From Pseudomonas sp. FP1742 (GTDB lineage: Bacteria > Pseudomonadota > Gammaproteobacteria > Pseudomonadales > Pseudomonadaceae), in contig NZ_CP117460.1 of assembly GCF_030687145.1 (NCBI RefSeq), forward strand, positions 1-64,000: DNA of 64,000 nucleotides, written 5' to 3'. Position 1 is the stretch's first letter. The number at the start of each line of letters is the position of its first letter. Positions 1 to 36,477 of the stretch are shown here, piece by piece. The notes beneath the pieces were generated by a model. The model saw only the letters and a program-made list of their open reading frames with translations. It was not told the origin of the DNA and did not search any database. The translations under genes were made by a program, and so were the position numbers.

Positions 1-1494
1 GTAGAGCTTTTGCGCGATGAGCTGCCTGCCCAACAATTCAACACTTGGATCCGTCCACTACAGGTCGAAGCCGAAGGCGACGAGCTGCGTGTCTACGCGC
101 CGAATCGTTTTGTTCTCGACTGGGTCAACGAAAAGTACCTGGGCCGCGTCCTCGAACTGCTGGATGAGCATGGCAATGGCCTGGCGCCGGCGCTTTCCTT
201 ATTAATAGGCAGCAAACGCAGTTCGGCACCGCGTGCGGCACCCAATGCCCCGTTGGCCGCTGCGGCGTCCCAGGCTCAGGCCGCTCAAGCGCCTGTCAGC
301 GCCCCGGCGCCAGCCCCGGCATCGGCCTCGACCAAACGTGCGACACAGAAAGTTGCCGAGGTCAGTGAAGAACCGTCCCGCGACAGCTTCGACCCAATGG
401 CCGGCGCCAGCTCGCAACAGGCCCCGGTTCGTTCCGAACAACGCACGGTGCAGGTCGAAGGTGCGCTCAAGCACACCAGCTACCTGAATCGCACGTTCAC
501 CTTCGAGAACTTCGTCGAAGGCAAGTCCAACCAACTGGCCCGGGCCGCGGCCTGGCAGGTGGCGGACAACCCCAAACACGGTTACAACCCGCTCTTCCTT
601 TATGGCGGCGTCGGTTTGGGTAAAACCCACTTGATGCACGCCGTGGGTAACCACCTATTAAAGAAGAACCCGAATGCCAAGGTCGTGTACCTGCATTCGG
701 AGCGTTTCGTGGCCGACATGGTCAAGGCGCTGCAGCTGAACGCGATCAACGAGTTCAAGCGCTTCTACCGTTCGGTGGATGCGTTGTTGATCGATGACAT
801 TCAGTTCTTCGCCCGCAAGGAACGTTCCCAGGAAGAGTTTTTCCACACCTTCAACGCCCTGCTCGAAGGTGGCCAGCAGGTCATTCTCACCAGTGACCGC
901 TATCCAAAAGAAATCGAAGGCCTTGAAGAACGCCTCAAATCCCGCTTTGGCTGGGGCCTGACGGTTGCCGTCGAGCCGCCGGAGCTGGAAACCCGTGTGG
1001 CGATCCTGATGAAAAAGGCCGACCAGGCCAAAGTCGATCTGCCACACGACGCCGCATTCTTCATTGCCCAGCGTATTCGCTCCAACGTCCGTGAGCTGGA
1101 AGGCGCGCTCAAACGCGTTATCGCCCACTCGCACTTCATGGGGCGCGACATCACCATCGAGTTGATTCGCGAATCCCTGAAAGACTTGTTGGCGCTGCAA
1201 GACAAACTGGTCTCTGTGGATAACATTCAGCGCACCGTCGCCGAGTATTACAAGATCAAGATCTCCGACCTGCTGTCCAAGCGTCGTTCACGCTCGGTAG
1301 CACGTCCGCGTCAGGTCGCCATGGCGTTGTCCAAGGAATTGACCAACCACAGCCTGCCGGAAATCGGCGATGTGTTTGGCGGCCGCGACCACACGACTGT
1401 TTTGCACGCCTGCCGCAAGATCAACGAGCTTAAGGAATCCGACGCGGACATCCGCGAGGACTACAAGAACCTGCTGCGTACACTGACCACTTGA
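1..1494 (+). CDS. dnaA: Chromosomal replication initiator DnaA (5' end cut by window)
   Basis: DnaA binds oriC, opens the duplex and loads the replicative helicase. The frame is open from base 1, so the first handful of codons lies outside the window; 497 residues are visible. Domain I (start to about residue 75) is followed by an Ala/Pro/Gln-rich linker, then the AAA+ domain with Walker A GGVGLGKT (about 604-627) and Walker B LLIDDIQF (about 784-807). The C-terminal DNA-binding domain carries the DnaA signature [15 protein letters not shown]. dnaN follows after 39 bp on the same strand. A DnaA box lies inside the gene at 1215-1223. Identification is certain; only the start is missing. Confidence 0.98.
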
Positions 1495-1533
1495 TGAACA
1501 CCAGCGCAGCTTATTAAGGCAAGGGACTAGACC

Positions 1534-2637
1534 ATGCATTTCACCATTCAACGCGAAGCCCTGTTGAAACCCCTGCAACTGGTCGCAGGCGTCGTCGAGC
1601 GCCGACAGACCTTGCCGGTGCTCTCCAACGTGCTGCTGGTTGTCGAAGGCCAGCAACTGTCGCTGACCGGTACCGACCTGGAAGTCGAGCTGGTCGGTCG
1701 CGTGCAACTCGAAGAGCCTGCAGACCCGGGTTCCATCACTGTGCCTGCGCGCAAACTGATGGACATCTGCAAGAGCTTGCCGAATGACGCGCTGATCGAC
1801 ATCAAGGTCGATGAGCAAAAGCTCGTGGTGAAGGCCGGCCGTAGCCGCTTCACCCTGTCGACCCTGCCGGCCAATGACTTCCCGACGGTGGAAGAAGGCC
1901 CGGGTTCGCTGACCTGCAGCCTGGAGCAAAGCAAACTGCGTCGTCTGATCGAACGCACCAGCTTCGCCATGGCGCAACAGGACGTACGTTACTACCTCAA
2001 CGGCATGCTGCTGGAAGTCTCGGCCGGGATCATCCGCGCCGTGGCGACCGATGGCCACCGTCTGGCCATGTGCTCGATGCAGGCCGATATCGGTCAGCCG
2101 GACCGTCATCAGGTCATCGTGCCACGCAAAGGTATTCTGGAACTGGCGCGCCTGCTGACCGAACCGGACGGCAACGTCAGCATCGTGTTGGGCCAGCATC
2201 ACATCCGCGCCACCACCGGCGAGTTCACCTTCACCTCGAAACTGGTCGACGGTAAATTCCCTGACTACGAGCGCGTCCTGCCTAAGGGCGGCGACAAGCT
2301 GGTACTCGGCGATCGCCAGGCCCTGCGTGAAGCGTTCAGCCGTACCGCGATTCTGTCCAACGAGAAGTACCGCGGCATCCGTCTGCAACTGGCCAACGGT
2401 CAGTTGAAGATCCAGGCGAACAACCCGGAGCAGGAAGAAGCGGAAGAAGAAGTGGGCGTTGAATACAACGGCGGCTCCTTGGAAATCGGCTTCAACGTGA
2501 GCTACCTGCTCGACGTATTGGGCGTGATGACCACCGAGCAGGTTCGCCTGATCCTGTCCGACTCCAACAGCAGTGCGCTGGTGCAAGAGTCCGACAACGA
2601 CGACTCGGCTTACGTTGTCATGCCGATGCGTCTGTAA
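1534..2637 (+). CDS. dnaN: DNA polymerase III beta sliding clamp
   Basis: This is the ring-shaped processivity clamp of DNA polymerase III, which tethers the polymerase and other DNA enzymes to the template. The 367-residue length is the family norm, and the protein shows the usual three repeated clamp domains, starting MHFTIQREALLKPLQ and ending in the typical YVVMPMRL tail. ATG 1534 is preceded by an AAGGGA ribosome-binding site. It lies between dnaA and recF, 20 bp before recF, in the conserved dnaA-dnaN-recF-gyrB order, and is probably co-transcribed with them. Confidence 0.98.
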   Translation: MHFTIQREALLKPLQLVAGVVERRQTLPVLSNVLLVVEGQQLSLTGTDLEVELVGRVQLEEPADPGSITVPARKLMDICKSLPNDALIDIKVDEQKLVVKAGRSRFTLSTLPANDFPTVEEGPGSLTCSLEQSKLRRLIERTSFAMAQQDVRYYLNGMLLEVSAGIIRAVATDGHRLAMCSMQADIGQPDRHQVIVPRKGILELARLLTEPDGNVSIVLGQHHIRATTGEFTFTSKLVDGKFPDYERVLPKGGDKLVLGDRQALREAFSRTAILSNEKYRGIRLQLANGQLKIQANNPEQEEAEEEVGVEYNGGSLEIGFNVSYLLDVLGVMTTEQVRLILSDSNSSALVQESDNDDSAYVVMPMRL

Positions 2638-2657
2638 TCATGCTCAGCAGAAGCTAG

Positions 2658-6183
<3,526 letters not shown>

Positions 6184-6184
<1 letters not shown>

Positions 6185-6241
6185 TCCGGCAGGACTGCTA
6201 AAACGAAAAAGGCCAACGCTTAGCGTTGGCCTTTTTTATTG
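6184..6241 (+). repeat. Direct repeat, left copy, flanking araC-eamA
   Basis: This segment begins at the gyrB stop (ATCCGGCAGGA...) and runs through the terminator to TTTTATTG. The copy at 8218-8274 differs by only a few bases (for example GACTGC versus GATCGC, and CTTAG versus CTCAG in the loop). The pair brackets exactly the AraC/EamA cassette, pointing to insertion by recombination at the gyrB end. Confidence 0.8.
6207..6237 (+). terminator. gyrB terminator (copy 1 of a duplicated segment)
   Basis: GGCCAACGC, a 3-base loop and GCGTTGGCC form a perfect stem at 6211-6231, preceded by AAAAA and followed by TTTTTT. It ends the dnaA-gyrB operon. A nearly identical 57-58 bp segment recurs at 8218-8274. 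Confidence 0.93.
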
Positions 6242-6306
6242 CAATGTACATTTCGTGGTGGAAACACTGCCAAGGGGTCGATTGTTTCCCCTTCTCGATC
6301 AATCGC

Positions 6307-7104
6307 TCAGAACATCGATGCACCTTTGGACTTTGCCAGATAACGCCCAGGTGAATCCCCCAAGTTACGCCGAAATACCGAGGTAAATGCGCTTGGGCTG
6401 CTGTAACCCAGATCAATCGCCACTTCGGTGATAGATGAACCATTGCTCAATCTGGATGTTGCTTCTAGCAAACAGACTTGTTGCCGCCAGAACACAAAAC
6501 TCATGCCAGTCGCTTCCCGAAAACTTCGCGTGAACGTTCGCCGGCTCATGCTCGACCAACTGGCCATTTCACTGATGGAAATATTCTGCGTGGGTGCATC
6601 AAGGAATCGATGGCACGAATGGGCCAGTCGAGGTTCTGACGGCAAAGGTGCGCTCAGTGGAAGCTTCGACATGGCGCCGATTTCATCCACCAGTAGCATC
6701 TGCACGGATTGGCTTCGGATATTGGGTGGTTGCTCTGGATCAATGGCCAATGCTGCTTCCAACAGATGCCTGAGCAGCGGCGAAACATTGTAGACCTGGC
6801 AATGCTCCGGCAAACCGGCGCGGATGGAGGCAACCTCATTGAGGTAAGTATTGATCATGGTCACGTCGCCGCGCATATGCATTTCATGCGACACGCACGC
6901 GGGAACCCAAAGCGCTCTTTGAGGTGGGACAACCCAATTCCCTTGATCGGTGAACATCTTCAACGCGCCCGTTGAGGCGTATGCAAACTGACCACGACTG
7001 TGCGTGTGCCGCGTAAAAACAGTACCCGAAGAATACTTGCGCAGGCTCACCACAGCATCGGGGCTTCCATGCTCGTAGGGATCTAGTGTTGGATTGATCA
7101 ACAT
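6307..7104 (-). CDS. AraC-family transcriptional regulator with cupin N-terminus
   Basis: This 265-residue protein is a probable DNA-binding regulator. The N-terminal half (about 15-100) has the look of a cupin ligand-binding domain (HTHSRGQFAYASTGAL, then VVPPQRALWVPACVSHEM). The C-terminal 100 residues hold the two helix-turn-helix motifs of AraC proteins, ending in the conserved block VAIDLGYSSPSAFTSVFRR. It is divergent from the EamA exporter across 158 bp containing several palindromes, so it most likely controls that gene. Both genes sit between duplicated gyrB terminators, and the cassette looks less GC-rich than its neighbours. The inducer is not predictable. Confidence 0.9.
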   Translation of the reverse strand: MLINPTLDPYEHGSPDAVVSLRKYSSGTVFTRHTHSRGQFAYASTGALKMFTDQGNWVVPPQRALWVPACVSHEMHMRGDVTMINTYLNEVASIRAGLPEHCQVYNVSPLLRHLLEAALAIDPEQPPNIRSQSVQMLLVDEIGAMSKLPLSAPLPSEPRLAHSCHRFLDAPTQNISISEMASWSSMSRRTFTRSFREATGMSFVFWRQQVCLLEATSRLSNGSSITEVAIDLGYSSPSAFTSVFRRNLGDSPGRYLAKSKGASMF

Positions 7105-7127
7105 GGCCCGATTTTGACAAAAATAGA

Positions 7128-7157
7128 CCTGCTATAGCAAGCAGGCCAAAATTTTGG
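7128..7157. promoter_or_regulatory. Tandem inverted repeats in the araC-eamA intergenic region
   Basis: CCTGCT-N6-AGCAGG (7128-7145) directly abuts a perfect 12-bp palindrome CCAAAATTTTGG (7146-7157). They lie 24-53 bp upstream of the AraC start and are candidate operators for the regulator. Function is inferred from position and symmetry only. Confidence 0.45.
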
Positions 7158-7221
7158 ACCATAGAATCGCATCTCCAAAAATATCTGATGTAGAAACGGT
7201 TCGCATTGAACTGATTGGAAT

Positions 7222-7243
7222 GCGGCATACCGCGGTGTGCCGC
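7222..7243. promoter_or_regulatory. 22-bp near-perfect palindrome just upstream of eamA
   Basis: GCGGCATACCG/CGGTGTGCCGC matches at 10 of 11 pairs and ends 19 bp before the EamA start codon. It could be an operator or, if transcribed, a GC-rich hairpin close to the ribosome-binding site. It stands out in an otherwise AT-leaning spacer. Confidence 0.5.
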
Positions 7244-7262
7244 TTAATGTGAGGCTAGGGAT

Positions 7263-8162
7263 ATGCAGAAAAAACATTTGGTTCTGGCGATACTCGTCAC
7301 CTTAGTGTGGGGAGTGAACTTTTCAATCACCAAGCTGGGTTTACGCTCTATCGATCCCTTTGTGTTAACCGGAATACGCTTTGCACTCGCCGCCATACCC
7401 TTGGTGTTCTTCATAAAGCGCCCCGCCATCAAGTTCAGCTATGTTGTCGCCTACGGCTTCATTTTCGGATTGGGTATGTGGGGCGTGATCAACTATGGCA
7501 TTCAGGTCGGTGTCAGCCCCGGTATTGCTTCGCTGATCATCCAGCTCAGCGTGTTCTTCACCATGGGGTGGGGGGCGTTATTCTTTAAAGAGCAGTTACG
7601 TAGGGTTCAGCTTATAGGGGCACTGCTGGCATTGGGCGGGTTGGCGGGCATCATTTCTACCCAGCAAGGAGAGCACGCAATACTTGGAGTACTGCTGATA
7701 GTGTTGAGTGCAGTCGCTTGGAGTGTAGGCAACGTGATTATCAAGAAATCCGGTGTCAAAGAGATCTTTTCATTCATGGTCTGGGCCAGTCTGTTTCCAC
7801 CCATCCCGCTCTTCTTCATCGCTTGGCTCATGCAGGGCGCCACGCCCTTTGAGAACCTGCAAAGCAGTCTCGACTTGACGGCTGTGCTGTCGATTGTTTT
7901 CCAGGTTTACCTAGCCACACACTTTGCCTATTGGGGATGGAATTCGCTGTTAAAGCTTTATCCCGTATCAACAGTGGCACCGCTGTCGTTGCTGATTCCG
8001 GTATTCGGTATTGGCAGTTCGATGCTGATTATCGGCGAACACATCTCGACACCGAACTTGATCTCAATTGCAATGATCATTATGGGATTGGCGGTCGGCC
8101 TCTATCGTAAGTCCCCCGTCATAATCAGTGCCGCCCCCAAAGCCGCGTTCCGCCCTGACTGA
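7263..8162 (+). CDS. EamA/DMT-family exporter
   Basis: This 299-residue inner-membrane protein has about ten hydrophobic helices arranged as two EamA repeats (roughly 5-135 and 145-285), the layout of drug/metabolite transporters. From memory it resembles E. coli EamA, the O-acetylserine/cysteine exporter (LVWGVNFSITKLGL near the start; VAPLSLLIPVFG in the second repeat). A GAGGCTAGGG ribosome-binding site precedes ATG 7263. It is divergent from an AraC regulator that probably controls it. The substrate is unknown; amino-acid or small-metabolite efflux is the family expectation. A duplicated gyrB-type terminator follows. Confidence 0.88.
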   Translation: MQKKHLVLAILVTLVWGVNFSITKLGLRSIDPFVLTGIRFALAAIPLVFFIKRPAIKFSYVVAYGFIFGLGMWGVINYGIQVGVSPGIASLIIQLSVFFTMGWGALFFKEQLRRVQLIGALLALGGLAGIISTQQGEHAILGVLLIVLSAVAWSVGNVIIKKSGVKEIFSFMVWASLFPPIPLFFIAWLMQGATPFENLQSSLDLTAVLSIVFQVYLATHFAYWGWNSLLKLYPVSTVAPLSLLIPVFGIGSSMLIIGEHISTPNLISIAMIIMGLAVGLYRKSPVIISAAPKAAFRPD

Positions 8163-8217
8163 ACCGGTCGTGCCAGAACTATGCATTTTTGCCAGCGTTT
8201 GCCAGGGCTGCCGAATC

Positions 8218-8274
8218 ATCCGGCAGGATCGCTAAATAAAAAAGGCCAACGCTCAGCGTTGGCCTTTTTTATTG
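8218..8274 (+). repeat. Direct repeat, right copy, with terminator 8244-8264
   Basis: This is the second copy of the gyrB 3' segment, including the perfect stem GGCCAACGCT/AGCGTTGGCC and its T-run. It serves as a terminator for the EamA gene and, read in reverse (A-run becomes T-run), also for the response regulator ending at 8284. Confidence 0.85.
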
Positions 8275-8283
8275 TTCGTCGAA

Positions 8284-9003
8284 TCATTCGCTAGCGGTGG
8301 CCACGCTCTCAAGCCGATACCCATACCCGTAAATCGTCAGCAGTTGCCAACCGCGATCAGCCGTCAGGCCCAGCTTGTTGCGCAGGCGATAAATATGAGT
8401 ATCCAGGGGCCGGGAGGATACGATTTCTTCATGGGTCCAAAAGCGCTCATACAAGTATTCACGGGACAAAGGTCGGCCCAGGTTGGCGAACAGACAACGG
8501 GCGAGCCGGTATTCCCGTTCGGTCAGGCTGATGGGGGTGTCGGCGCGGGTGACAGTGAGTTCGGCGTCGTCGAATTCAAGGTCATTGAAGGTGAGTATTT
8601 CAGTGGCTGCCGCGCGTTGCAGTCCATGCCGACGAAGCACCGCGCTCACCCGAGCCATCAGCTCGTTGGGGCGAAACGGTTTGCTTACATAATCGTCGGC
8701 TCCGGCGTTCAAGGCCTGGACGATATCGCTTTCGGTATCGCGACTGGTGAGCATGATCGCGGCCGGCGGTGCGTCCATGTGTTCACGGGTCCAGCGTAAC
8801 AACGACAGGCCACTGATATCGGGCAATTGCCAGTCGAGGATCAGCAGATCGAAGGTTTCGCGCCGAAGTTGCCGTAGCAGGTCCTCTCCCCGCTCGAAAC
8901 TGTGCAACGTCCACGCCTGCTCCCCCGTGACGGGGATCTGTCGCAGTGTCTGTTCCACCCGGCGGAGTTCGGCGGGTTCGTCATCCAGTATTGCGACACG
9001 CAT
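8284..9003 (-). CDS. OmpR/PhoB-family response regulator
   Basis: This 239-residue regulator has a receiver domain (AILDDE acidic pocket at the N-terminus, phospho-acceptor Asp57 in LLILDWQLPD, LTSRD and KPF switch residues) and a C-terminal winged-helix DNA-binding domain (LTEREYRLARCLFANLG, RLRNKLG). The frame is open to 9021, but ATG 9003 is preferred because AAGGA lies ten bases upstream. It is divergent from the FecR-domain gene and lies near the CHASE2 kinase, the obvious cognate sensor. Its stop is close to the duplicated terminator. The target genes are unknown. Confidence 0.92.
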   Translation of the reverse strand: MRVAILDDEPAELRRVEQTLRQIPVTGEQAWTLHSFERGEDLLRQLRRETFDLLILDWQLPDISGLSLLRWTREHMDAPPAAIMLTSRDTESDIVQALNAGADDYVSKPFRPNELMARVSAVLRRHGLQRAAATEILTFNDLEFDDAELTVTRADTPISLTEREYRLARCLFANLGRPLSREYLYERFWTHEEIVSSRPLDTHIYRLRNKLGLTADRGWQLLTIYGYGYRLESVATASE

Positions 9004-9082
9004 GCCGAGTGTTTCCTTCATCTCGTAAGTGCAACGTTAAGAAAATTCCTGCGGGAGTTTAGGCTGATTGGTTGAATCTGAA

Positions 9083-9098
9083 CAATTGTGGCCAATTG
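9083..9098. promoter_or_regulatory. Inverted repeat CAATTG-N4-CAATTG upstream of the response regulator
   Basis: Two 6-bp self-complementary half-sites are separated by TGGC. The position, about 80 bp upstream of the regulator start, suits an operator, possibly for autoregulation. This rests on symmetry and position alone. Confidence 0.35.
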
Positions 9099-9175
9099 CT
9101 GCGAACTTCCCAAGTATGGATACGCTGATATCACTTAGCCGGTAGGCGATGAATGCAAGAGGGACTGTGGGAAAG

Positions 9176-9427
9176 ATGCATCTAAAGATTCTCTTTAACG
9201 GGTTTACAAGATTGGCAGCGTTGATGTTGGCGTCGGGTCTCGGGTTGGGATGCACCACGATTCAGTCAACATCAGCCATCGAGTGGAATGCTGTACCGCG
9301 TTACTTTGGCCCGGCGAAGACAAACACGATGATGGGGGATTCGCCAGGTTTTGCTCCGGTGCACTCCCCACGAGTAGAGGCGGCACAACTCGACATTCAC
9401 CCGGCACAACAACGTTGGGTATTTTAG
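9176..9427 (+). CDS. Possible small lipoprotein, doubtful
   Basis: An 83-codon frame starts at ATG 9176 (or ATG 9149) and begins with a Lys, a hydrophobic stretch and a cysteine (LASGLGLGCTT), like a type II signal peptide, although the residue three before Cys is Gly, which is atypical. The rest has no family I recognise. GGGAAAG lies just before ATG 9176. It sits between a divergent response regulator and the FecR gene and could be a small envelope partner, or chance coding. Confidence 0.3.
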   Translation: MHLKILFNGFTRLAALMLASGLGLGCTTIQSTSAIEWNAVPRYFGPAKTNTMMGDSPGFAPVHSPRVEAAQLDIHPAQQRWVF

Positions 9428-10752: not shown

Positions 10753-10770
10753 CACCCTGGCCGGCGACCA

Positions 10771-13247: not shown

Positions 13248-13256
13248 TTATCCACA
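13248..13256 (+). other. DnaA box (TTATCCACA), intergenic
   Basis: This exact strong DnaA box lies 5 bp beyond the plsC stop. It is the first of a dense set of identical 9-mers between 13 and 36.5 kb (see findings). Confidence 0.6.
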
Positions 13257-14122: not shown

Positions 14123-14656
14123 TTAGTTGTGGATAAGTTCCGCGGCAATCGCCGCCAGATCGTCAAAAATCAAGGTGCCTGCCGGTAGGGTCTTGCCCTG
14201 AGTCTTTTCGCCTTTTCCGGTCTTTACCAAAACTGGCTGACAGTCGACGGCTTTGGCGGCTTCCAGGTCACCGAGAGTATCGCCGACGAACCATAGATTC
14301 GTCAGCGAAACGTTGTAATGCGCGGCGATGGTTTTCAACATCCCCGGTTTTGGCTTGCGGCAATCGCAGCCATCGTCTGGCCCGTGCGGGCAATAGACGA
14401 TCAGCCCGACCTCGCCGCCCCGCTCCGCCACCAACTCGCGCAAGCGAGCATGCATGGCCTCCAGGGTGGCGATGTCGTAATAGCCGCGAGCGATGCCCGA
14501 CTGATTGGTAGCCACGGCTACCGTCCAGCCAGCCTTGCTCAACTGCGCGATCGCTTCGATCGAACCGGGGAGTGGAATCCACTCCTCCACCGACTTGATG
14601 TACGCGTCGGAGTCGTAATTGATCACCCCGTCCCGATCGAGAATCAGCAGTTTCAA
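14123..14656 (-). CDS. gmhB: D-glycero-D-manno-heptose-1,7-bisphosphate 7-phosphatase
   Basis: GmhB removes the 7-phosphate from heptose bisphosphate on the way to ADP-heptose for the LPS inner core. It is a cytosolic HAD phosphatase: motif I DRDGVIN, motif II ATNQSG, and the zinc-binding loop CPHG...CDCRKPKPGM. The frame runs up to 14710, but homology begins at LKLLILDRDG; a TTG at 14656 with GAGGGG six bases upstream is the likely start, giving 177 residues. This start lies 10 bp after the glyS stop, so the genes are probably translationally linked. plsC follows 81 bp downstream. Confidence 0.93.
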   Translation of the reverse strand: MKLLILDRDGVINYDSDAYIKSVEEWIPLPGSIEAIAQLSKAGWTVAVATNQSGIARGYYDIATLEAMHARLRELVAERGGEVGLIVYCPHGPDDGCDCRKPKPGMLKTIAAHYNVSLTNLWFVGDTLGDLEAAKAVDCQPVLVKTGKGEKTQGKTLPAGTLIFDDLAAIAAELIHN

Positions 14657-18349: not shown

Positions 18350-18358
18350 TGTGGATAA
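18350..18358 (-). other. DnaA box overlapping the lpxL start codon
   Basis: TGTGGATAA (TTATCCACA on the minus strand) contains the GTG start codon of the lpxL-type gene. DnaA bound here would cover the translation start region of the DNA. This is one of 16 exact boxes counted in the window. Confidence 0.55.
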
Positions 18359-19298: not shown

Positions 19299-19613
19299 TC
19301 AGTGCGCCTGACGTTCAAGCTTTTTCAGAAACACCGTCATCTCCTTCTCCGCCTGCTTGTCGCCATGGGCGCGGGCAGCTTCCAGACCCTGCTCCCAGGC
19401 CTGCCGCGCCGCCGCGTAATCCGCCAGCGCCAGATGGGCCTTGCCCAAAAGCTTCCAGGCTGCCGAATACTTCGGATCGAACTCGACGCAGCGCTGGAAA
19501 TGCTCCGCGGCCTTGGCATTTTCACCCAGATCCAGATAACCCTTGCCCAGGCCGAAGCGCAGCAATGAGTTATCCACACCCTTGGCGAGCATTTTTTCCA
19601 GGGATTCGATCAT
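19299..19613 (-). CDS. Small TPR-repeat protein
   Basis: This 104-residue soluble protein consists of about two and a half tetratricopeptide repeats (LRFGLGKGYLDLGENAKAAEHFQRCVEFDPKY is one unit, split here between alanine-rich helices). Such modules mediate protein contacts; no enzymatic function is expected. ATG 19613 (MIESLEKML) is chosen because AAGGA lies seven bases upstream; the extension to 19724 would translate a REP element. It is convergent with lpxL. A DnaA box (19570-19578) lies in its coding sequence. Its own partner is not evident. Confidence 0.8.
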   Translation of the reverse strand: MIESLEKMLAKGVDNSLLRFGLGKGYLDLGENAKAAEHFQRCVEFDPKYSAAWKLLGKAHLALADYAAARQAWEQGLEAARAHGDKQAEKEMTVFLKKLERQAH

Positions 19614-20955: not shown

Positions 20956-22329
20956 TCAGAAGAAGCTCAGCCCCACATGGAACAGCTTCTCCACATCCCG
21001 AATATGCTTTTTATCCACAAGGAACAGAATCACATGGTCGCCGGTTTCGATCACGGTGTCGTCGTGGGCGATGATTACTTCTTCGTCGCGGATGATCGCG
21101 CCGATGGTGGTGCCCGGCGGCAGGCCGATGTTTTCGATGGCCTTGCCGATCACCTTGCTCGACTTCGCATCGCCGTGGGCGATGGCCTCGATGGCTTCCG
21201 CCGCGCCCCGGCGCAATGAGTGCACGCTGACGATATCGCCGCGGCGCACGTGGGCCAGCAAGGTGCCGATGGTCGCCAGTTGGGGGCTGATGGCGATGTC
21301 GATGTCGCCGCCCTGGATCAGGTCGACGTAGGCCGGGTTGTTGATGATCGTCATCACCTTCTTCGCGCCCAGGCGCTTGGCCAGCAGCGAAGACATGATG
21401 TTGGCTTCGTCATCGTTGGTCAGGGCCAGGAAAATATCGGCGTCGGCGATGTTTTCTTCCAGCAGCAGATCCCGATCCGAAGCACTGCCCTGCAACACCA
21501 CGGTGCTGTCGAGGTTGTCCGAGAGGTAGCGGCAGCGGGCCGGGTTCATCTCGATGATCTTCACCTGGTAACGGCTTTCGATGGCTTCGGCCAGGCGTTC
21601 ACCGATCTGCCCGCCACCGGCGATGACGATGCGTTTGTAGCTTTCATCGAGGCGGCGCATTTCGCTCATCACTGCACGAATATTCGCTTTGGCGGCGATG
21701 AAAAACACTTCGTCGTCAGCCTCGATCACCGTATCGCCCTGGGGCAGGATTGGCCGGTCACGACGGAAAATCGCCGCGACGCGGGTTTCGACATTCGGCA
21801 TGTGTTCGCGTAGCTGGCGCAGTTGCTGGCCCACCAACGGCCCGCCGTAGTACGCCTTGACCGCTACCAGCTGCGCTTTGCCTTCGGCGAAGTCGATCAC
21901 CTGCAATGCGCCCGGATGCTGGATCAGGCGCTTGATGTAATTGGTGACCACTTGCTCCGGACTGATCAGCACGTCGACCGGGATCGCTTCGTTATCGAAC
22001 AGTTCGGCGCGGGTCAGGTACGCGGCTTCGCGGACCCGGGCGATCTTGGTGGGGGTGTGGAACAGGGTGTGGGCGACCTGACAGGCGACCATGTTGGTTT
22101 CGTCACTATTGGTCACGGCCACCAGCATGTCGGCGTCGTCGGCACCGGCCTGCCGCAGCACGGTCGGCAGCGAGCCGCGACCCTGCACGGTGCGGATGTC
22201 CAGCCGATCGCCGAGGTCGCGCAGGCGTTCGCCATCGGTGTCGACCACGGTGATGTCGTTGGCCTCGCTGGCCAAGTGTTCCGCCAGCGAACCGCCGACC
22301 TGCCCTGCGCCGAGGATGATGATCTTCAT
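20956..22329 (-). CDS. trkA: Trk potassium uptake regulator TrkA
   Basis: TrkA is the cytosolic NAD(H)- or nucleotide-binding gating subunit of the Trk K+ uptake system, working with TrkH/TrkG in the membrane. The 457 residues contain two RCK_N Rossmann domains ([13 protein letters not shown] at the N-terminus; [14 protein letters not shown] near residue 238), each followed by an RCK_C domain. Length matches E. coli TrkA (458). It lies 22 bp downstream of rsmB on the same strand, the conserved Pseudomonas order. A DnaA box lies in its 3' part (21011-21019). No membrane partner gene is in the window. Confidence 0.97.
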
Positions 22330-22351: not shown

Positions 22352-23662
22352 TTAACCGCGCGCGGCGGCAATCTTGATCAGCTTGGCGTAGTAGAACCCG
22401 TCGTGGCCGCCTTCCTGGGCCAGCAACTGGCGACCATGGGGCTGCTTGATGCCGGCCGTCGTGGCGAGGTCCAGTTCACGGGCGCCTGGCGTGCGGGCGA
22501 GGAACGCTTCGATGACTTCGGTGTTTTCGGTCGGCAGCGTGGAGCAGGTGGCGTAAAGCAGAATGCCGCCCACCTCCAGAGTTATCCACATGGCGTCGAG
22601 CAGTTCGCCCTGAAGCACCGCCAGTGCGGCGATGTCGTCGGGTTGGCGGGTCAGTTTGATATCCGGGTGACGGCGGATCACCCCGGTGGCCGAGCATGGC
22701 GCGTCGAGCAGAATGCGCTGGAACGGTTTGCCGTCCCACCAGGTGGCGGTGTCGCGACCGTCGGCGGCAATCAATTCTGCGCTCAGGCCCAGGCGTGCGA
22801 GGTTTTCCCGCACCCGCACCAGACGCTTGGCTTCCAGATCCACGGCCACCACGCCGGCCAGTTTGGGCTCGGCCTCAAGGATGTGGCAGGTCTTGCCGCC
22901 CGGTGCGCAGCAGGCGTCCAGCACCCGTTGGCCCGGCGCCAGGTCCAGCAGATCGGCGGCCAGTTGTGCGGCTTCGTCCTGCACGCTGATCCAGCCTTCA
23001 GCGAACCCTGGCAGGCTGCGCACGTCGGCAGCGGTGTCGAGGATGATGCCGTCGCGACTGTAAACGCAGGGCGTGGCGGCCACACCGGCGTCGCTCAGCA
23101 AGCCGAGGTAAGCGTCGCGAGTATGATGACGACGATTCACCCGCAGAATCATCGGCGGATGCGCGTTGTTCGCTGCACAAATGGCTTCCCATTGTTCAGG
23201 CCAGAAGGCCTTGAGGGATTTTTGCAACCAGCGCGGGTGGGCGGTGCGCACCACCGGGTCGCGTTCCAGCTCGGCCAGCAGCGCTTCACTTTCCCGTTGG
23301 GCGCGGCGCAGTACGGCGTTGAGCAAGGCTTTGGCCCACGGTTTTTTCAGTTTGTCGGCGCAACCGACGGTTTCGCCGATGGCGGCGTGAGCCGGCACGC
23401 GGGTATAGAGCAGTTGATAAAGCCCCACCAGCAACAGCGCCTCGACATCGGCATCAGCCGCCTTGAACGGCTTTTGCAGCAGCTTGGCCGCCAACGCCGA
23501 CAAGCGCGGCTGCCAGCGAGCCGTGCCGAACGCCAGGTCCTGGGTGAAGCCGCGATCACGGTCTTCAACCTTGTCCATTTGCGTCGGCAGAGAACTGTTG
23601 AGTGAGGCTTTTCCGTTAAGAACGGCAGCAAGTGCCTTGGCGGCGGCCAGACGTGGGTTCAT
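22352..23662 (-). CDS. rsmB: 16S rRNA (cytosine-967-C5) methyltransferase RsmB
   Basis: RsmB methylates C967 of 16S rRNA with S-adenosylmethionine. The 436-residue protein has an N-terminal NusB-like RNA-binding domain and a C-terminal Rossmann methyltransferase with the SAM motif [11 protein letters not shown] and the two catalytic cysteines in DAPCSATG and [11 protein letters not shown] 23662 overlaps the fmt stop by four bases, so translation is coupled; the frame extension to 23779 is not used. It lies in the conserved fmt-rsmB-trkA run. A DnaA box lies at 22582-22590. Confidence 0.97.
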
Positions 23663-24618: not shown

Positions 24619-24650
24619 GGAAGCTCTCGATTGCAAAGCATCTTGAAAAG

Positions 24651-24676: not shown

Positions 24677-24688
24677 GAAAGAAGGGCA

Positions 24689-26413: not shown

Positions 26414-26422
26414 TTATCCACA
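26414..26422 (+). other. DnaA box between the LysM gene and dprA
   Basis: An exact TTATCCACA lies 47 bp before the dprA start, in the 80-bp spacer. It is part of the local enrichment described in the findings. Confidence 0.5.
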
Positions 26423-26468: not shown

Positions 26469-27575
26469 ATGTCGCTGTCTGCCTGTATGCCGGTTTCCCC
26501 TGCGGAACTGGAAGCCCGTTTACGCCTGCACCGTTTGCCGGAGCTTGGTCCGGCACGGTTCAAGAAGTTGCTTGAAGCTTTCGGCTCTGCCTCCAAAGCC
26601 ATCAGCGCACCGGCCAGCGCCTGGCGCGCGTTGGGTCTGCCCCTCGCTTGCGCGCAGGCCCGGCGCTGCAGTGAAATTCGCGATGGCGCCAGCCGCGCAT
26701 TGGCCTGGCTAGAGTGTCCGGGCCAGCATTTACTGATGTGGGACCAACCTGACTACCCTGCACTGCTGGCGCAAATCAGTGATGCGCCGCCGCTGTTATT
26801 CGTCGCGGGCGATCCGGGCATTCTGGAAAAACCGCAGTTGGCGATGGTCGGCAGCCGTCGCGCGTCGCGCCCGGGCATGGACACTGCAGCGGCGTTTTCC
26901 CGCAGCCTGGCCGGCGCCGGGTTTGTCATCACCAGCGGTCTGGCGCTGGGCATCGATGCCGCCGCGCATCAGGCGGCTCTGGACGTTGGTGGGCAAACGG
27001 TCGGGGTGCTTGGCACCGGGCTTGAAAATTTTTATCCACAGCGCAATCGAAGGTTGGCGGACGCCATGATCGCCTCGGGAAGCGCGGTACTTTCGGAGTT
27101 CCCGCTGGACGCCGGTCCTTCGCCCGGCAATTTCCCCCGGCGCAATCGAATCATCAGCGGTTTGTCCCTTGGTGTGCTGGTGGTCGAGGCGAGTGTCGCC
27201 AGCGGTTCATTGATCACCGCGAGGCTGGCGGCGGAACAGGGGCGTGAGGTGTATGCGATTCCAGGTTCGATTCACCACCCTGGCGCAAAGGGTTGCCATC
27301 AGTTGATCCGCGATGGTGCGGTGCTGGTGGAAACCATCGAGCACATCCTTGAAGCCTTGCGCGGCTGGCAACGGCTGCCGTTATCCACAGAAACGCCGCA
27401 AACGACGGTGACTCATCCACTGCTCACGTTGCTCCACGCGGCGCCTCATACCAGTGAGGCCTTGGCAGCCTCCAGTGGCTGGACTTTGTCGAAAGTACTG
27501 GCAGCGCTGACGGAACTGGAAATGGACGGCCGGGCGGTCTGCGAAAGCGGTCGATGGTTTGCGCGGGTAAACTAG
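26469..27575 (+). CDS. dprA: DNA processing protein DprA
   Basis: DprA binds incoming single-stranded DNA during transformation and loads RecA onto it. The 368-residue protein shows the Rossmann-like core with the family motifs VGSRRASRPGM and SGLALGIDAAAH, GTGLENFYPQRNRRL and the FPRRNRIISGLS block. A winged-helix domain forms the C-terminus. AAGGATG precedes ATG 26469. It is followed by tsaC 54 bp downstream, the order also seen in P. aeruginosa. Two DnaA boxes fall in its codons (27032-27040 and 27381-27389). Confidence 0.96.
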   Translation: MSLSACMPVSPAELEARLRLHRLPELGPARFKKLLEAFGSASKAISAPASAWRALGLPLACAQARRCSEIRDGASRALAWLECPGQHLLMWDQPDYPALLAQISDAPPLLFVAGDPGILEKPQLAMVGSRRASRPGMDTAAAFSRSLAGAGFVITSGLALGIDAAAHQAALDVGGQTVGVLGTGLENFYPQRNRRLADAMIASGSAVLSEFPLDAGPSPGNFPRRNRIISGLSLGVLVVEASVASGSLITARLAAEQGREVYAIPGSIHHPGAKGCHQLIRDGAVLVETIEHILEALRGWQRLPLSTETPQTTVTHPLLTLLHAAPHTSEALAASSGWTLSKVLAALTELEMDGRAVCESGRWFARVN

Positions 27576-27629: not shown

Positions 27630-28187
27630 ATGGTTAACAGTTGGCGTGTGCAACAAGCCGCACGAGAAATTCGCGCCGGGGCGGTGATTGCCTACCCAAC
27701 CGAAGCTGTCTGGGGCCTGGGTTGCGACCCGTGGAACGAAGATGCGGTGGATCGGCTACTGCTGATCAAGGGACGGTCTGTGGATAAGGGCCTGATTCTG
27801 GTGGCCGACAATATCCGTCAGTTCGACTTCCTGTTCGAAGATTTCCCCGAATTGTGGATGGATCGCATGGCCAGCACCTGGCCCGGCCCCAACACCTGGC
27901 TGGTGCCGCATCAGAATCTGTTGCCGCAGTGGATTACCGGTGTGCATGAAACAGTGGCGTTGCGGGTCAGCGATCACCCGGTGGTGCGGGATTTGTGTGC
28001 GTTGGTCGGGCCGTTGGTGTCGACCTCGGCGAACCCTCAGGGGCGGCCGGCGGCACGGACGCGGATTCGCGTGGAGCAGTATTTCCGGGGGCAGGTTGAT
28101 TATGTGCTCGGTGGCCATCTGGGAGGGCGCAAGAACCCGAGTGTGATTCGCGATCTGGCCACCGGCCATGTGGTGCGCCCGGATTGA
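27630..28187 (+). CDS. tsaC: Threonylcarbamoyl-AMP synthase TsaC (YrdC)
   Basis: TsaC makes threonylcarbamoyl-AMP from threonine, bicarbonate and ATP, the first step of t6A37 modification of ANN-decoding tRNAs. At 185 residues it is the short YrdC form without the Sua5 extension. The N-terminal block [13 protein letters not shown] and the later [11 protein letters not shown] are characteristic. GGAGAG lies upstream of ATG 27630. It follows dprA and ends at a REPIN. A DnaA box lies at 27779-27787 in its coding sequence. Confidence 0.95.
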
Positions 28188-32948: not shown

Positions 32949-33881
32949 TTACAGTTTGGCTTTGACCGCAGGCAACGCATCCTTCCCGTCCACAGTCTTC
33001 ACACCGTCCAGCCATTTATCCAGCACCGCCGGGTTGGCCTTGATCCACGCCTTGGCCGCGTCGGCGTTGCTGACCTTTTTGTTCACCACCTCGGCCATGA
33101 TGCTGTTCTCCATTTCCTGGGTAAAACTCAGGTTGGTGAGCAGTTTGCCGACGTTCGGGCAGGCCTGTGCATAACCTTTGCGGGTCAGTGTATAAACGCT
33201 GCCGGTGTCACCGAAATACTTCTCGCCGCCCTTCAGATAATGCATTTTCAACTGCACGTTCATCGGGTGTGGCGTCCAGCCGAGGAAGGTCACGAACTTC
33301 TGTTTCTTCACCGCGCGGGACACTTCGGCCAGCATCGCCTGCTCGCTGGACTCGACCAGTTTCCACTGACCCATGTCGAAGTCGTTCTTCTTGATGATCT
33401 CTTGCAGCGAAATGTTCGCCGGGGCGCCGGAGCCGATGCCATAGATCTTCTTATCGACTTCTTTTGGGTGTAGCTCGGCGTACTTGTTCAGGTCGTTAAA
33501 GTTATGCACACCCGCGTCCCAGACGTAATCCGGGACCGCCAGGGTGAACTCGGTGCCGTCGAGGTTCTTCGCCAGTTGCGTGACGTCGCCGTTGGCCACG
33601 AATTTGTCGTAGAAGCCTTGCTGCGCCGGCATCCAGTTGCCGAGGAAGACGTCCACCTGGCCATCCTTCAGGCCGCCAAAGGTGATCGGCACCGCCAGCG
33701 TGTCGACCTTGGCCTTGTAGCCCATGCCGTCCAGCAGAAAACCGGTGATGGCGTTGGTGGCGGCGATGTCGCTCCAGCCAGGGTCGGCCATCTTCACCGT
33801 TTCGCAGCTTTGCTCGGCGTAGGCCGAGGTGCTGCCCAGAGCCAGAAACCCGACTGTCAGTACTGTGGATAACTTTTGCAT
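32949..33881 (-). CDS. choX: Choline-binding periplasmic protein ChoX
   Basis: ChoX is the substrate-binding protein of a choline ABC importer. It has 310 residues with a signal peptide cleaved near AYA-EQS and an OpuAC-type glycine betaine/choline-binding fold (ADPGWSDI, FLGNWMPAQQ, FLGWTPHPMN hold typical aromatic-box residues). There is no permease or ATPase gene beside it, so it must use a transporter encoded elsewhere, as in other pseudomonads. It lies 16 bp after betC on the same strand, and choline would be the product of BetC. A DnaA box (33865-33873) falls in its signal-peptide codons. Confidence 0.93.
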   Translation of the reverse strand: MQKLSTVLTVGFLALGSTSAYAEQSCETVKMADPGWSDIAATNAITGFLLDGMGYKAKVDTLAVPITFGGLKDGQVDVFLGNWMPAQQGFYDKFVANGDVTQLAKNLDGTEFTLAVPDYVWDAGVHNFNDLNKYAELHPKEVDKKIYGIGSGAPANISLQEIIKKNDFDMGQWKLVESSEQAMLAEVSRAVKKQKFVTFLGWTPHPMNVQLKMHYLKGGEKYFGDTGSVYTLTRKGYAQACPNVGKLLTNLSFTQEMENSIMAEVVNKKVSNADAAKAWIKANPAVLDKWLDGVKTVDGKDALPAVKAKL

Positions 33882-33897: not shown

Positions 33898-35412
33898 TTA
33901 TTGGTTTTGGCAGGGTTGTGGATAACGGGCTTTACGCTCCAGATCGTCGAGGTCGATGTGGTTGCGCATGTACTGCTGACTGGCGTCCACCAGCGGCTGG
34001 TGATCCCAGCTCTTCAGCTTGCCGATGGTCAGGGCGCCGGCGACGAAGCGCCGGCGTCGCTGACTGGCGAGCACCTGTTGGTGGATCGCCGGGATATTCC
34101 ATTTGGCCCGTGCTTCGGCGAGAAAATCCTCGAACAGCTGACGATGTTGCGGCGAATGGCTGAGTTCTTCCTGTTCACGCGGGTCGTTGTGCACGTCGAA
34201 GAGCAGGCAAGGGTCGTCTTCGCTGTAGATGAATTTGTAGGCGCCGCGACGAATCATCATCAACGGGCTGATGGTGCCTTCGGCCATGTATTCACCGAAC
34301 ACCTCGTCGTGACCGCCCTGCCCTTGCAGGTGTGAAACCAGCGAGCGGCCGTCCAGCGGTAAACCCGGTTCCAGTGAGCCGCCGGCTAATTCCACAAAGG
34401 TCGGCAACAAGTCGGCGGTGGAGACCGCCGCACTGACGCGGGCGGCGCCGAATTGTCCCGGCGCACTGATCAGCAGCGGGACGCGGGCGGCCATTTCGTA
34501 CCAGTGCATTTTGTACCAGAGCCCGCGCTCGCCGAGCATGTCGCCGTGGTCACCGGAGAACACGATGATGGTGTCGTCGATCAACCCGGTTTCTTCCAGT
34601 GTTTGCAGGAGTTTGCCGACGTTGCTGTCGATATAACTGCACGCACCGAAGTAGGCACGGCGCGCGTCGCGAATCTTATCCACAGGCAGCGGCTTGTCCC
34701 ACAGGTCATAGACTTTGAGCAGACGCTTGGAGTGTGGATCGAGTGCTTCCTGGTCTGGTGTTTCGGGTAAAGGGATGTCGGCATCGTCGTACAGATCCCA
34801 GAAGGCCTTGGGAATCGTGTACGGGTCGTGTGGGTGAGTCATCGACACGGTCAGGCAGAACGGCTGATCGCCATCCTCACGGATATGATCGAACAGGTAT
34901 TGCTGGGCCTTGAACACCACCTCTTCGTCGAAATCCAGCTGATTGGTGCGCACGCAGGGCCCGGCTTGCAGTACGGACGACATGTTGTGGTACCAGCTCG
35001 GCCGTACGTCCGGCTCGTCCCAGTTCACCGCCCAGCCGTAGTCCGCCGGGTAGATGTCGCTGGTCAGCCGTTCTTCATAGCCGTGCAACTGGTCCGGGCC
35101 GCAGAAGTGCATCTTGCCCGACAGCGCGGTGCGGTAACCGAGGCGCCGCAGGTAGTGGGCATAGGTCGGAACGTCGGCGGGGAAATCGGCCGCGTTGTCG
35201 TAGGCGCCGATCTTGCTCGGCAACTGACCGCTGACCAGGGTGAAACGTGACGGTGCGCAGAGCGGGCTGTTGCAGTACGCGGCGTCGAACACCACACCTT
35301 CGGCGGCGAGGCGGCTCAGATTCGGCAGTTTGATGGGCGAAGGGCCGTAGAACGGCAACATTGGCGCGGCCATCTGATCGGCCATGATGAAAAGAATATT
35401 TTTGCGCTTCAT
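33898..35412 (-). CDS. betC: Choline-sulfatase BetC
   Basis: BetC hydrolyses choline-O-sulfate to choline and sulfate, supplying the osmoprotectant precursor and sulfur. The 504-residue sulfatase has the formylglycine motif CAPSR at Cys52, metal-binding Asp near the N-terminus (FIMADQ) and the HTDPHD-like block SMTHPHDPY. The start ATG 35412 (MKRKNILFIM) is preferred over ATG 35430. The cluster with choX and a divergent LysR regulator identifies it within the sulfatase family. Two DnaA boxes fall in its codons (33917-33925 and 34676-34684). No signal peptide is seen, as expected for cytoplasmic BetC. Confidence 0.95.
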   Translation of the reverse strand: MKRKNILFIMADQMAAPMLPFYGPSPIKLPNLSRLAAEGVVFDAAYCNSPLCAPSRFTLVSGQLPSKIGAYDNAADFPADVPTYAHYLRRLGYRTALSGKMHFCGPDQLHGYEERLTSDIYPADYGWAVNWDEPDVRPSWYHNMSSVLQAGPCVRTNQLDFDEEVVFKAQQYLFDHIREDGDQPFCLTVSMTHPHDPYTIPKAFWDLYDDADIPLPETPDQEALDPHSKRLLKVYDLWDKPLPVDKIRDARRAYFGACSYIDSNVGKLLQTLEETGLIDDTIIVFSGDHGDMLGERGLWYKMHWYEMAARVPLLISAPGQFGAARVSAAVSTADLLPTFVELAGGSLEPGLPLDGRSLVSHLQGQGGHDEVFGEYMAEGTISPLMMIRRGAYKFIYSEDDPCLLFDVHNDPREQEELSHSPQHRQLFEDFLAEARAKWNIPAIHQQVLASQRRRRFVAGALTIGKLKSWDHQPLVDASQQYMRNHIDLDDLERKARYPQPCQNQ

Positions 35413-35526
35413 GTGATCGCGGCATTCCATAGTGGATATTTATGCGAGAGTGCTGTGATCGAGCATGCAACCCATGGAACTTGTGGTAAAGCCCATGCCA
35501 GGCAATGACTAGGATAAGCACAGCTT

Positions 35527-36477
35527 ATGTATGACGCCCTCGGTGATTTGTCTCTGGATCTGCTGCGTGCCTTTGAAGCCGCGGCCCGGCAGCGCAGTTT
35601 CACTGCCGCTGCAGTAGAGCTCGGCACCACGCAGCCGGCCATCAGCCAGCAGATCAAACGGTTGGAAGAGCAGCTCGCTACACGGTTGTTCGACCGCATT
35701 TATCGCGGTATCGAACTGACCGAGGCTGGCGCCATTCTGTTTGAGCAAGTTCAGCTCGGTTTACAGAATATCGACGCAGGATTGAGTGCGATCAGTGCAC
35801 AGCAGCAACACGAAGTGTTGCAGGTGGCCACCGACTTCGCTTTCGCCGCGTACTGGCTGATGCCGCGTCTGCACCGCTTCCATACCGCCAATCCTCAGGT
35901 GGACGTCAGCCTGGTGACCAGCGAGCGCAGCCACAACATGCTGCGCACCGATATCGATGTGGCCGTGCTGTTCGGTGATGGTCGGTTCAAACAGGGTGAG
36001 AGCCACTGGCTATTCAGTGAAGAGGTGTTTCCGGTGTGCAGCCCGCTGTTATTGAGGGACCGCCCCCTGCCCTTGCCGGCTCAGTCATTGCTGGAGTTTC
36101 CGCTGCTGCACTTGCGAGGCGAACACAGCAGCAACTGGTTCGACTGGAGCGGCGTGTTTCGCGAGCTGGGGATTACATCGGCACCCGCGCCGGGGCAACT
36201 GCGCTTCGACAATTACACCTTGCTGATTCAGGCGGCGATTGGCGGCCAGGGCGTTGCGATCGGTTGGCGGCACCTTGTGGATAACTTGCTGGCGCAAGGT
36301 CTGTTGTGTCGACCTATTGCCGAGACGGTGATTTCCAGGCTGGGTTATTACGTGGTCCTGCCCCAGCGCAAACGGCGCGGAGCGTTGATTCAAACGTTTG
36401 TGGATTGGTTGATGGCGGAACAGGCCAACAGTGCGCAATCGCTCAATGGCCTTCCTTTGCCATCGATTGCGGTATGA
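35527..36477 (+). CDS. LysR-family regulator of the choline-sulfate cluster
   Basis: This 316-residue regulator has an N-terminal winged helix (LDLLRAFEAAARQRSF, TTQPAISQQIKRLEEQL) and a C-terminal periplasmic-binding-like effector domain. It is divergent from betC across 114 bp, the classic LysR arrangement, and equals PA0032 beside betC in P. aeruginosa as I recall it. It is expected to activate betC-choX in response to choline sulfate or choline; the effector is inferred. A DnaA box lies at 36276-36284. Confidence 0.9.
   Translation: MYDALGDLSLDLLRAFEAAARQRSFTAAAVELGTTQPAISQQIKRLEEQLATRLFDRIYRGIELTEAGAILFEQVQLGLQNIDAGLSAISAQQQHEVLQVATDFAFAAYWLMPRLHRFHTANPQVDVSLVTSERSHNMLRTDIDVAVLFGDGRFKQGESHWLFSEEVFPVCSPLLLRDRPLPLPAQSLLEFPLLHLRGEHSSNWFDWSGVFRELGITSAPAPGQLRFDNYTLLIQAAIGGQGVAIGWRHLVDNLLAQGLLCRPIAETVISRLGYYVVLPQRKRRGALIQTFVDWLMAEQANSAQSLNGLPLPSIAV

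What the first reader, a model, noticed from the sequence alone, without database searches (positions are those of the whole stretch)
1215..36284. Sixteen exact DnaA boxes, 15 packed between 13.2 and 36.3 kb
TTATCCACA or its complement occurs at 1215, 13248, 14128, 18350, 19245, 19570, 21011, 22582, 26414, 27032, 27381, 27779, 33865, 33917, 34676 and 36276 by my reading. With roughly 60% GC a random 9-mer of this composition is expected about 0.2 times in 64 kb on both strands, so the excess is about 70-fold. Many lie inside codons of unrelated genes, so coding does not explain it. I see none from 36.3 to 64 kb. A DnaA titration or oriC-proximal regulatory domain (as datA or DARS in E. coli) is the simplest idea.
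Basis: partly seen in the sequence, partly recalled or inferred. Interest (0 to 1): 0.75.

Follow-up and report, generated by a model that had tools for sequence, protein, structure and literature searches.

The report
DnaA-site field around Pseudomonas replication origin
Around the replication origin of this Pseudomonas chromosome, the 9-letter docking site of the replication starter protein DnaA is packed far beyond chance, with several copies preserved across related species, most likely as a sponge that mops up DnaA right after replication starts.

Summary
The window opens with dnaA on a 6.67 Mb Pseudomonas chromosome and shows the right arm of a field straddling oriC. The chromosome holds 143 copies against 23 of the reversed motif; 36 lie within 50 kb of dnaA (2.1 expected), 133 in the oriC half, 10 in the terminus half. 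It is the commonest 9-mer in 960 kb of oriC flanks of eight Pseudomonas genomes. Four same-order genomes hold 1-4 copies near dnaA, E. coli 4 in 100 kb around oriC. Composition and codon choice (22 coding copies against 0.93) do not explain it. Six of 13 scored sites are highly conserved (e.g. 53 of 53, 77 of 79), in two genes at synonymous positions; seven are not. Best reading: an early-copied sink of high-affinity sites that titrates DnaA after initiation, in a genome without a SeqA match. Binding and titration are inferred. A five-box array 552 kb left of oriC has every aligned box exact in 19 relatives. New variant of a known kind.

The parts
10..1494 (+). dnaA; the end of its reading frame encodes DNA-binding domain IV
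   Evidence: NCBIfam TIGR00362, 623 bits; domain IV closely matches E. coli 1j1v over 93 residues, 164 bits
1215..1223 (-). exact DnaA box inside dnaA
   Evidence: exact in 5 of 8 genus genomes
13248..13256 (+). exact DnaA box in a convergent intergenic gap (not a promoter position)
   Evidence: exact in 53 of 53 aligned relatives, flank identity 0.69; convergent
14128..14136 (-). exact DnaA box at the 3' end of ORF 14123-14710(-)
   Evidence: exact in 34 of 58
18350..18358 (-). exact DnaA box over the GTG start of a lysophospholipid acyltransferase gene
   Evidence: exact in 29 of 72; gene NF004190
19245..19253 (-). exact DnaA box just after the acyltransferase stop, convergent gap
   Evidence: exact in 5 of 12; convergent
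19570..19578 (+). exact DnaA box inside a TPR-protein ORF (19299-19724, -)
   Evidence: exact in 64 of 72; TPR
21011..21019 (+). exact DnaA box inside trkA
   Evidence: exact in 63 of 79; TrkA
22582..22590 (+). exact DnaA box inside rsmB, present in few relatives
   Evidence: exact in 6 of 80; RsmB
26414..26422 (+). exact DnaA box between a LysM-protein gene and dprA
   Evidence: exact in 72 of 73, flank identity 0.81
27032..27040 (+). exact DnaA box inside dprA, conserved at synonymous positions
   Evidence: exact in 77 of 79, flank identity 0.75; TAT 78/79 and CCA 78/79
27381..27389 (+). exact DnaA box inside dprA, not conserved
   Evidence: exact in 7 of 48
27779..27787 (-). exact DnaA box inside tsaC
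   Evidence: exact in 20 of 79
33864..33872 (-). exact DnaA box near the 5' end of an OpuAC-family ABC substrate-binding gene
   Evidence: exact in 24 of 53; OpuAC
33917..33925 (-). exact DnaA box near the 3' end of a choline-sulfatase gene
   Evidence: exact in 51 of 57; CCA 54/57, TAT 54/57
34676..34684 (+). exact DnaA box inside the choline-sulfatase gene
   Evidence: exact in 13 of 33
36276..36284 (-). exact DnaA box inside a LysR-family regulator gene
   Evidence: exact in 1 of 3 aligned loci; LysR
33166..33174 (-). near-consensus box TTATGCACA
   Evidence: relatives carry the exact box here in 9 of 61

Best explanation
The boxes are the right arm of a field of consensus, high-affinity DnaA sites that straddles oriC and that selection maintains in Pseudomonas. 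Mechanism proposed: oriC fires when free DnaA saturates its own boxes; the forks then copy the flanking field within about a minute (fork speed recalled), so the number of strong DnaA sites next to oriC doubles at once and draws DnaA away from the two new origins. Later, the broader ori-half sites and the five-box array at -552 kb extend the sink. Single sites are partly exchangeable, and several are fixed. SHOWN: density, presence on both sides of oriC, occurrence in all eight genus relatives examined, conservation of six sites beyond their surroundings, conserved synonymous codons in two genes, a DnaA reading head close to that of E. coli. INFERRED: occupancy by DnaA, titration, effect on timing.
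For: Exact count. 143 against 23 genome-wide; 36 of 143 within 50 kb, ori half 133, ter half 10; in two relatives listed whole, 29 of 80 and 19 of 50 within 50 kb. Eight of eight genus genomes fetched (of 12) have a field: 12-33 boxes in 120 kb for seven, 23 in 40 kb for the eighth. Commonest 9-mer of all in 960 kb. Permuted 9-mers show no ori bias: 325 of 3219 within 40 kb against 36 of 62 boxes in the same 764 kb. Synonymous shuffle mean 0.93, maximum 4 of 300 shuffles, against 22. Box windows are conserved more than other 9-mer windows: mean 0.60 against 0.25, 0 of 20000 random sets reach it. dprA TAT and CCA 78 of 79 each, while CCA is 197 of 2002 Pro codons elsewhere in dprA. The five most frequent one-mismatch variants in the core are changed in the first four bases and keep CCACA; they are rarer far from oriC (far set: own genome only). 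Domain IV match to 1j1v; the P. putida high-affinity box is TTATCCACA (PMC4285127, passages). No SeqA match, Hda present.
Against: No occupancy or timing data. The field is lopsided: more boxes left than right of dnaA in the own genome (22 and 16 in 120 kb) and in 8 of 8 relatives, two of which have only 1 and 2 on the right. The right arm varies: 4-15 boxes in 72 full-length loci. The weakest relative, G008, has 12 boxes against 3 of the reversed motif in 120 kb. Seven of the 13 window boxes scored are not unusually conserved (each equalled or exceeded by more than 10% of windows). With the looser motif TTWTNCACA the contrast to E. coli shrinks to 46 against 17 in 100 kb. 143 sites may be few against the DnaA copies per cell (hundreds or more in E. 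coli, recalled). The lagging-strand preference reported in E. coli is absent: 74 of 143 in leading orientation. No boxes from -200 to -100 kb and +40 to +100 kb, so the decline is not smooth. Excess is not confined to the peak: coding boxes beyond 60 kb are 21 against 2.0.
Confidence: 0.62

Rival explanations
1. Local transcription control: each box is a DnaA operator that couples a neighbouring gene to the replication cycle.
For: Intergenic share is above the non-coding share: 13 of 36 core boxes wholly intergenic (four of them oriC) against 12% non-coding; 7 of the 13 intergenic boxes within 60 kb lie between codirectional genes, where a promoter could be; 26414 lies 47 bp before dprA and is kept in 72 of 73; 18350 overlaps a start codon.
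Against: 25 of 38 boxes within 60 kb are in coding sequence; of 13 intergenic ones 4 are oriC itself and 2 are convergent, including 13248, which is exact in 53 of 53. The named genes are unrelated. Does not predict a peak at oriC.
Confidence: 0.13
2. Origin architecture or segregation: DnaA bound to the field organises the origin region together with ParB/parS.
For: The field shares the region with parS-like sites (motif recalled): one exact site at +3.7 kb and one-mismatch sites at +3.1, -35.1 and -47.4 kb, in a search from -400 to +364 kb.
Against: The box-free interval 1.2-13.2 kb holds the parS pair; no interaction data; the ori-half enrichment to about 1.3 Mb is wider than this parS region.
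Confidence: 0.12
3. The cluster contains compact datA- or DARS-like elements that change the nucleotide state of DnaA, and the scattered boxes are secondary.
For: Elements of this kind exist in E. coli (PMC4585315, passages); a conserved five-box array lies at -552 kb.
Against: In the window the closest exact boxes are 53 bp apart and no three exact boxes fall within 100 bp. The -552 kb array shows no exact IHF consensus (motif recalled). Degenerate boxes were not mapped for this.
Confidence: 0.07
4. Artefact of composition, codon usage or a dispersed repeat.
For: Six of the coding boxes encode V-D-K or V-D-N, so coding supplies some of the raw material.
Against: Permutations and synonymous shuffles speak against it; outside the 9-mer there are only weak preferences (G at -1 in 38 of 62, G at +1 in 39 of 62), so it is not a longer repeat.
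Confidence: 0.02

Closest known systems
OriC-centred DnaA-box accumulation in E. coli and Salmonella (Olivi et al. 2025, PMC12371093; abstract, section 6 and passages seen)
   Same: Box density peaks around oriC; proposed to favour DnaA titration; permuted motifs do not show it.
   Different: There the peak was measured with degenerate motifs (about 900 boxes per genome) in windows of 2 to 10 centisomes. Here the exact consensus alone peaks within about 37 kb each side: 36 in 100 kb against 4 in E. coli, or 46 against 17 with TTWTNCACA. No lagging-strand preference. The main text does not mention Pseudomonas.
OriC-proximal DnaA-box clusters of Bacillus subtilis (Okumura et al. 2012; not held, known through the review PMC5295017, passages)
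   Same: DnaA boxes outside oriC; removing six clusters gave early initiation, re-adding one partly relieved it.
   Different: Those are six discrete clusters; here single boxes are scattered over about 60 kb, mostly in genes. [quoted passage not shown] subtilis.
datA of E. coli (PMC4585315, passages)
   Same: Lowers active DnaA; conserved relative distance from oriC; five boxes, like the -552 kb array.
   Different: The window part is dispersed and mostly in genes; no exact IHF site in the -552 kb array.
Pseudomonas oriC between rpmH and dnaA (genome papers PMC3596284, PMC3056050, PMC3918161, PMC6053426; passages)
   Same: Same TTATCCACA boxes; four exact copies in about 380 bp before dnaA here.
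   Different: The passages seen describe only boxes inside oriC, not the flanking field.

Membership tests
High-affinity DnaA box | Exact TTATCCACA, the P. putida high-affinity sequence | tested here: met
   table in PMC4285127
High-affinity DnaA box | Host DnaA has the matching DNA-binding domain | tested here: met
   domain IV against 1j1v, 164 bits over 93 residues
High-affinity DnaA box | Bound by DnaA in the cell | not testable with these tools
   needs ChIP-seq
OriC-centred DnaA-box accumulation (E. coli type) | Density maximum near oriC beyond permuted-motif controls | tested here: met
OriC-centred DnaA-box accumulation (E. coli type) | Preference for the lagging strand | tested here: not met
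   74 of 143 in leading orientation
OriC-proximal DnaA-box clusters (B. subtilis type) | Boxes outside oriC but close to it | tested here: met
OriC-proximal DnaA-box clusters (B. subtilis type) | Removal causes early initiation | not testable with these tools
   needs genetics
datA | Compact intergenic element with several boxes (window part) | tested here: not met
   irregular gaps of 53 bp to 6.1 kb between 13 and 36 kb, 13 of 16 boxes in genes
datA | Five boxes in one element (array at -552 kb) | tested here: met
   spacing 147, 182, 182, 161
datA | IHF site in the element (array at -552 kb) | tested here: not met
   no exact WATCAANNNNTTR (recalled) in L036 12701-13900, both strands; weaker sites not scored
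DARS | Core of three adjacent boxes | tested here: inconclusive
   no three exact boxes within 100 bp in the window; degenerate boxes not mapped

The most novel reading that the evidence does not exclude
Pseudomonas, lacking a SeqA match, times replication mainly by counting: an early-copied field of consensus DnaA sites around oriC doubles right after firing and takes the place of origin sequestration, backed by a conserved five-box array about 0.5-0.65 Mb away. Part of the field is written into codons of unrelated genes and kept there by selection on synonymous positions.
Probability: 0.35. Interest if true: 0.82.

Novelty: new variant of a known kind. Interest (0 to 1): 0.62.

Why it matters
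Whether chromosomal DnaA boxes time replication by titration has been argued for decades. E. coli is a hard test case: many of its sites are degenerate and SeqA and datA act in parallel. Here nature supplies a sharp field of consensus sites at oriC, found in all eight genus relatives examined, in a genome without a SeqA match. The six most conserved window sites name specific targets, and lab strains such as P. putida KT2440 make the test practical. It also points to a genome-scale regulatory signal embedded in coding sequence.

Tried and rejected
Composition bias: rejected by permutation controls. Codon usage: rejected by synonymous shuffling within genes (my own ORF caller, so gene limits are approximate). 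Dispersed longer repeat: only weak flank preferences. Strand bias: none. Known RNA family at the boxes or the array: none at gathering scores in window, L036 and L020; the two Rfam hits lie elsewhere. Uniqueness in the class: in the sample of 274 genomes G000 has the largest raw count (143), but some smaller genomes have a similar or higher density in excess of the reversed motif, e.g. G115, G135, G270; positions near oriC were not checked in those. High count alone does not give an oriC peak: G018 has 147 boxes (34 reversed) but 4 within 40 kb of dnaA. The dprA codon table was read in the wrong frame and is replaced. In one search box 19570 was called intergenic from hand-set gene limits; one search places it in an ORF. 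In one search only plus-strand array loci were scored; one search repeats it for all 19. differ by 1-2 loci at two boxes because of gap handling; one search is quoted.

Rows left out: windows aligned in fewer than 30 loci were dropped (13 of 16 boxes scored); loci under 20.8 kb (8 of 80) were left out of the range 4-15. Of 12 genus relatives, eight had their dnaA flanks fetched; G004, G006, G007 and G009 did not. Of six same-order genomes, G014 gave no DnaA match and G017 was not fetched. G011 covers only 20 kb each side of dnaA and is not among the eight genomes (own plus seven). The 19 array loci are the best of 61 matching relatives among 78, so they favour similar sequences; G001, G003, G008 and G012 are among the 17 genomes without a match. 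Around the array's neighbour gene, two of five relatives (G006, G009) show no exact box within 3.6 kb.

Literature: the listings of ten searches showed no paper on DnaA-box distribution around oriC in Pseudomonas; subscription papers and preprints are mostly not held.
Full report
Observation. All 16 exact TTATCCACA matches are in the window, one at 33864 and not 33865; shuffles give 0.19. The stretch 36.3-64 kb is free of them. The window is G000:C1:1-64000 of a single-contig 6,669,235 bp genome and opens with dnaA. Of the 80 closest named loci, 79 are titled Pseudomonas and one Pantoea.

Whole chromosome. 143 exact boxes against 23 for the reversed motif. Searches list 142; the last, at 6669048, was read from the sequence. 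Densities per 100 kb by distance from dnaA: 56 (0-25 kb), 16 (25-50), 5 (50-100), 2.0-4.4 (100 kb to 1 Mb), 2.3 (1-1.5 Mb), then 0.6, 0.4, 0.1 and 0. There are two layers: a sharp peak within about 37 kb of oriC and a broad ori-half excess to about 1.3 Mb. The terminus half, 10 boxes, is about what the reversed motif predicts. The finding is the right arm of the peak; 20 boxes lie in the 25 kb to the left, four of them in about 380 bp before dnaA. Permuted 9-mers in 764 kb around dnaA show no such bias (325 of 3219 within 40 kb, share 0.101; length share 0.105; boxes 36 of 62), and GC is flat at 0.585-0.604.

Not coding. In genes of the core (-25 to +37 kb) 22 boxes against a mean of 0.93 and a maximum of 4 in 300 within-gene synonymous shuffles; far genes 21 against 2.0 in 60 shuffles. 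The core has 36 boxes: 13 wholly intergenic, 22 wholly coding, one straddling.

Relatives. Eight of the 12 genus relatives were fetched around dnaA (located) and all have the field: 29, 30, 19, 26, 12, 21 and 33 boxes in 120 kb, and 23 in 40 kb for the one fetched at 20 kb each side; reversed control 0-3. In all eight, and in the own genome, more boxes lie left of dnaA than right, so the field straddles oriC but is lopsided. For two of them, G003 and G012, the whole chromosome was listed: 29 of 80 and 19 of 50 boxes lie within 50 kb. Four same-order genomes have 3, 1, 2 and 4 boxes in 62-80 kb; E. coli K-12 has 4 in 100 kb around oriC. With the looser TTWTNCACA the contrast is 46 (own) against 17 (E. 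coli). In 960 kb of oriC flanks from eight genomes (own plus seven) TTATCCACA is the most frequent of all 9-mers, 208 copies; the best permutation has 39. In G005 the right-hand block lies about 32 kb further from dnaA with boxes kept at matching intervals, so boxes travel with the gene block.

Conservation of single sites. Against 80 loci around the gene at 23761-24678: 13248 exact in 53 of 53, 26414 in 72 of 73, 27032 in 77 of 79, 33917 in 51 of 57, 19570 in 64 of 72, 21011 in 63 of 79; the others range from 6 of 80 to 34 of 58, and 1215 is outside these loci. Mean exact conservation of the 13 scored boxes is 0.60 against 0.25 for all 9-mer windows; none of 20000 random sets reaches it, and 1 in 20000 sets of windows with the same GC count does. 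In dprA the box codons TAT and CCA are the same in 78 of 79 loci although CCA is about 10% of proline codons elsewhere in the gene. In the choline-sulfatase gene CCA and TAT are kept in 54 of 57 each while some nearby synonymous sites vary; within that gene this level is not rare, 6-10% of other codons reach it. Boxes in rsmB, tsaC and the second one in dprA are not conserved. Of 676 boxes in the 80 loci, 606 map to 40 window positions, 17 of which occur in only one or two loci. So the field mixes fixed sites with turnover. On the left side the boxes at -5.6 and -3.8 kb are exact in 8 of 8 and 7 of 8 genus genomes.

Who reads the motif. DnaA domain IV matches the E. coli structure 1j1v closely, and the P. 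putida high-affinity box is this 9-mer (PMC4285127, passages). The one-mismatch variants most frequent in the core are changes in the first four bases (ATATCCACA 41, TTTTCCACA 29, TTACCCACA 29, TTGTCCACA 20 in 720 kb).

Mechanism. The likeliest role is titration. From these positions a quarter of all exact boxes are copied by the time forks have gone about 36 kb and half by about 552 kb, that is within about a minute and roughly 10-15 minutes (fork speed recalled). The genome has no SeqA match while the E. coli control does, and it has Hda above the cut-off, so another block to re-initiation besides Hda would be useful; this step is inference. Transcription control does not explain convergent or mid-gene conserved boxes or the oriC peak; an architectural role is not excluded.

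A second element. Eight exact boxes fall in 3 kb at -552 kb. Five form an array with spacings 147, 182, 182 and 161. A DNA match to it is found in 62 of 79 genus genomes, own included, many of them weak. In the 19 best relatives every aligned box is exact (11 of 11 for the first box, 19 of 19 for each of the other four) while other columns average 0.77 identity. In the four genomes where I worked out the distance, the array lies left of dnaA by 552 kb (own), 647 kb (G005), 526 kb (G010) and 556 kb (G011); others were not worked out. It resembles datA in box number but shows no exact IHF consensus; no function is shown.

Known or new. Enrichment of DnaA boxes near oriC was reported for E. coli and Salmonella in 2025 with degenerate motifs (PMC12371093, section 6), and removal of oriC-proximal clusters gave early initiation in B. 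subtilis (through PMC5295017, passages). I found no paper describing it for Pseudomonas in the listings of ten searches of the open library. I rate it a new variant of a known kind.

Noticed in passing
L036:12935-13615 (G000:C1:6116935-6117615): Array of five exact DnaA boxes at spacings 147/182/182/161, about 552 kb left of oriC; every aligned box exact in the 19 best-matching relatives while the rest averages 0.77 identity; a DNA match in 62 of 79 genus genomes, own included.
   Followed up: partly
L017:3215-3318 (G000:C1:6592450-6592553): Three exact DnaA boxes 46-48 bp apart with near-boxes between them.
   Followed up: no
window 1224-13247: Box-free interval of 12 kb beside oriC; 1.5-12 kb is empty in four of eight genus relatives and holds 1-4 boxes in the other four.
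   Followed up: partly
window 3079 and 3709: A parS-like site with one mismatch and an exact parS palindrome 0.6 kb apart (motif recalled).
   Followed up: no
window 9497-9664 (+): RsmV small RNA, Rfam RF04320, 118.7 bits.
   Followed up: no
window 51966-52057 (-): ivy-DE RNA element, Rfam RF02999, 86.9 bits.
   Followed up: no
window 19746-20707 (-): IS110-family transposase whose two domains lie in two overlapping reading frames, inside the box field.
   Followed up: no
G018: A same-order genome with 147 exact boxes (34 reversed) but only 4 within 40 kb of dnaA: many boxes without an oriC peak.
   Followed up: no
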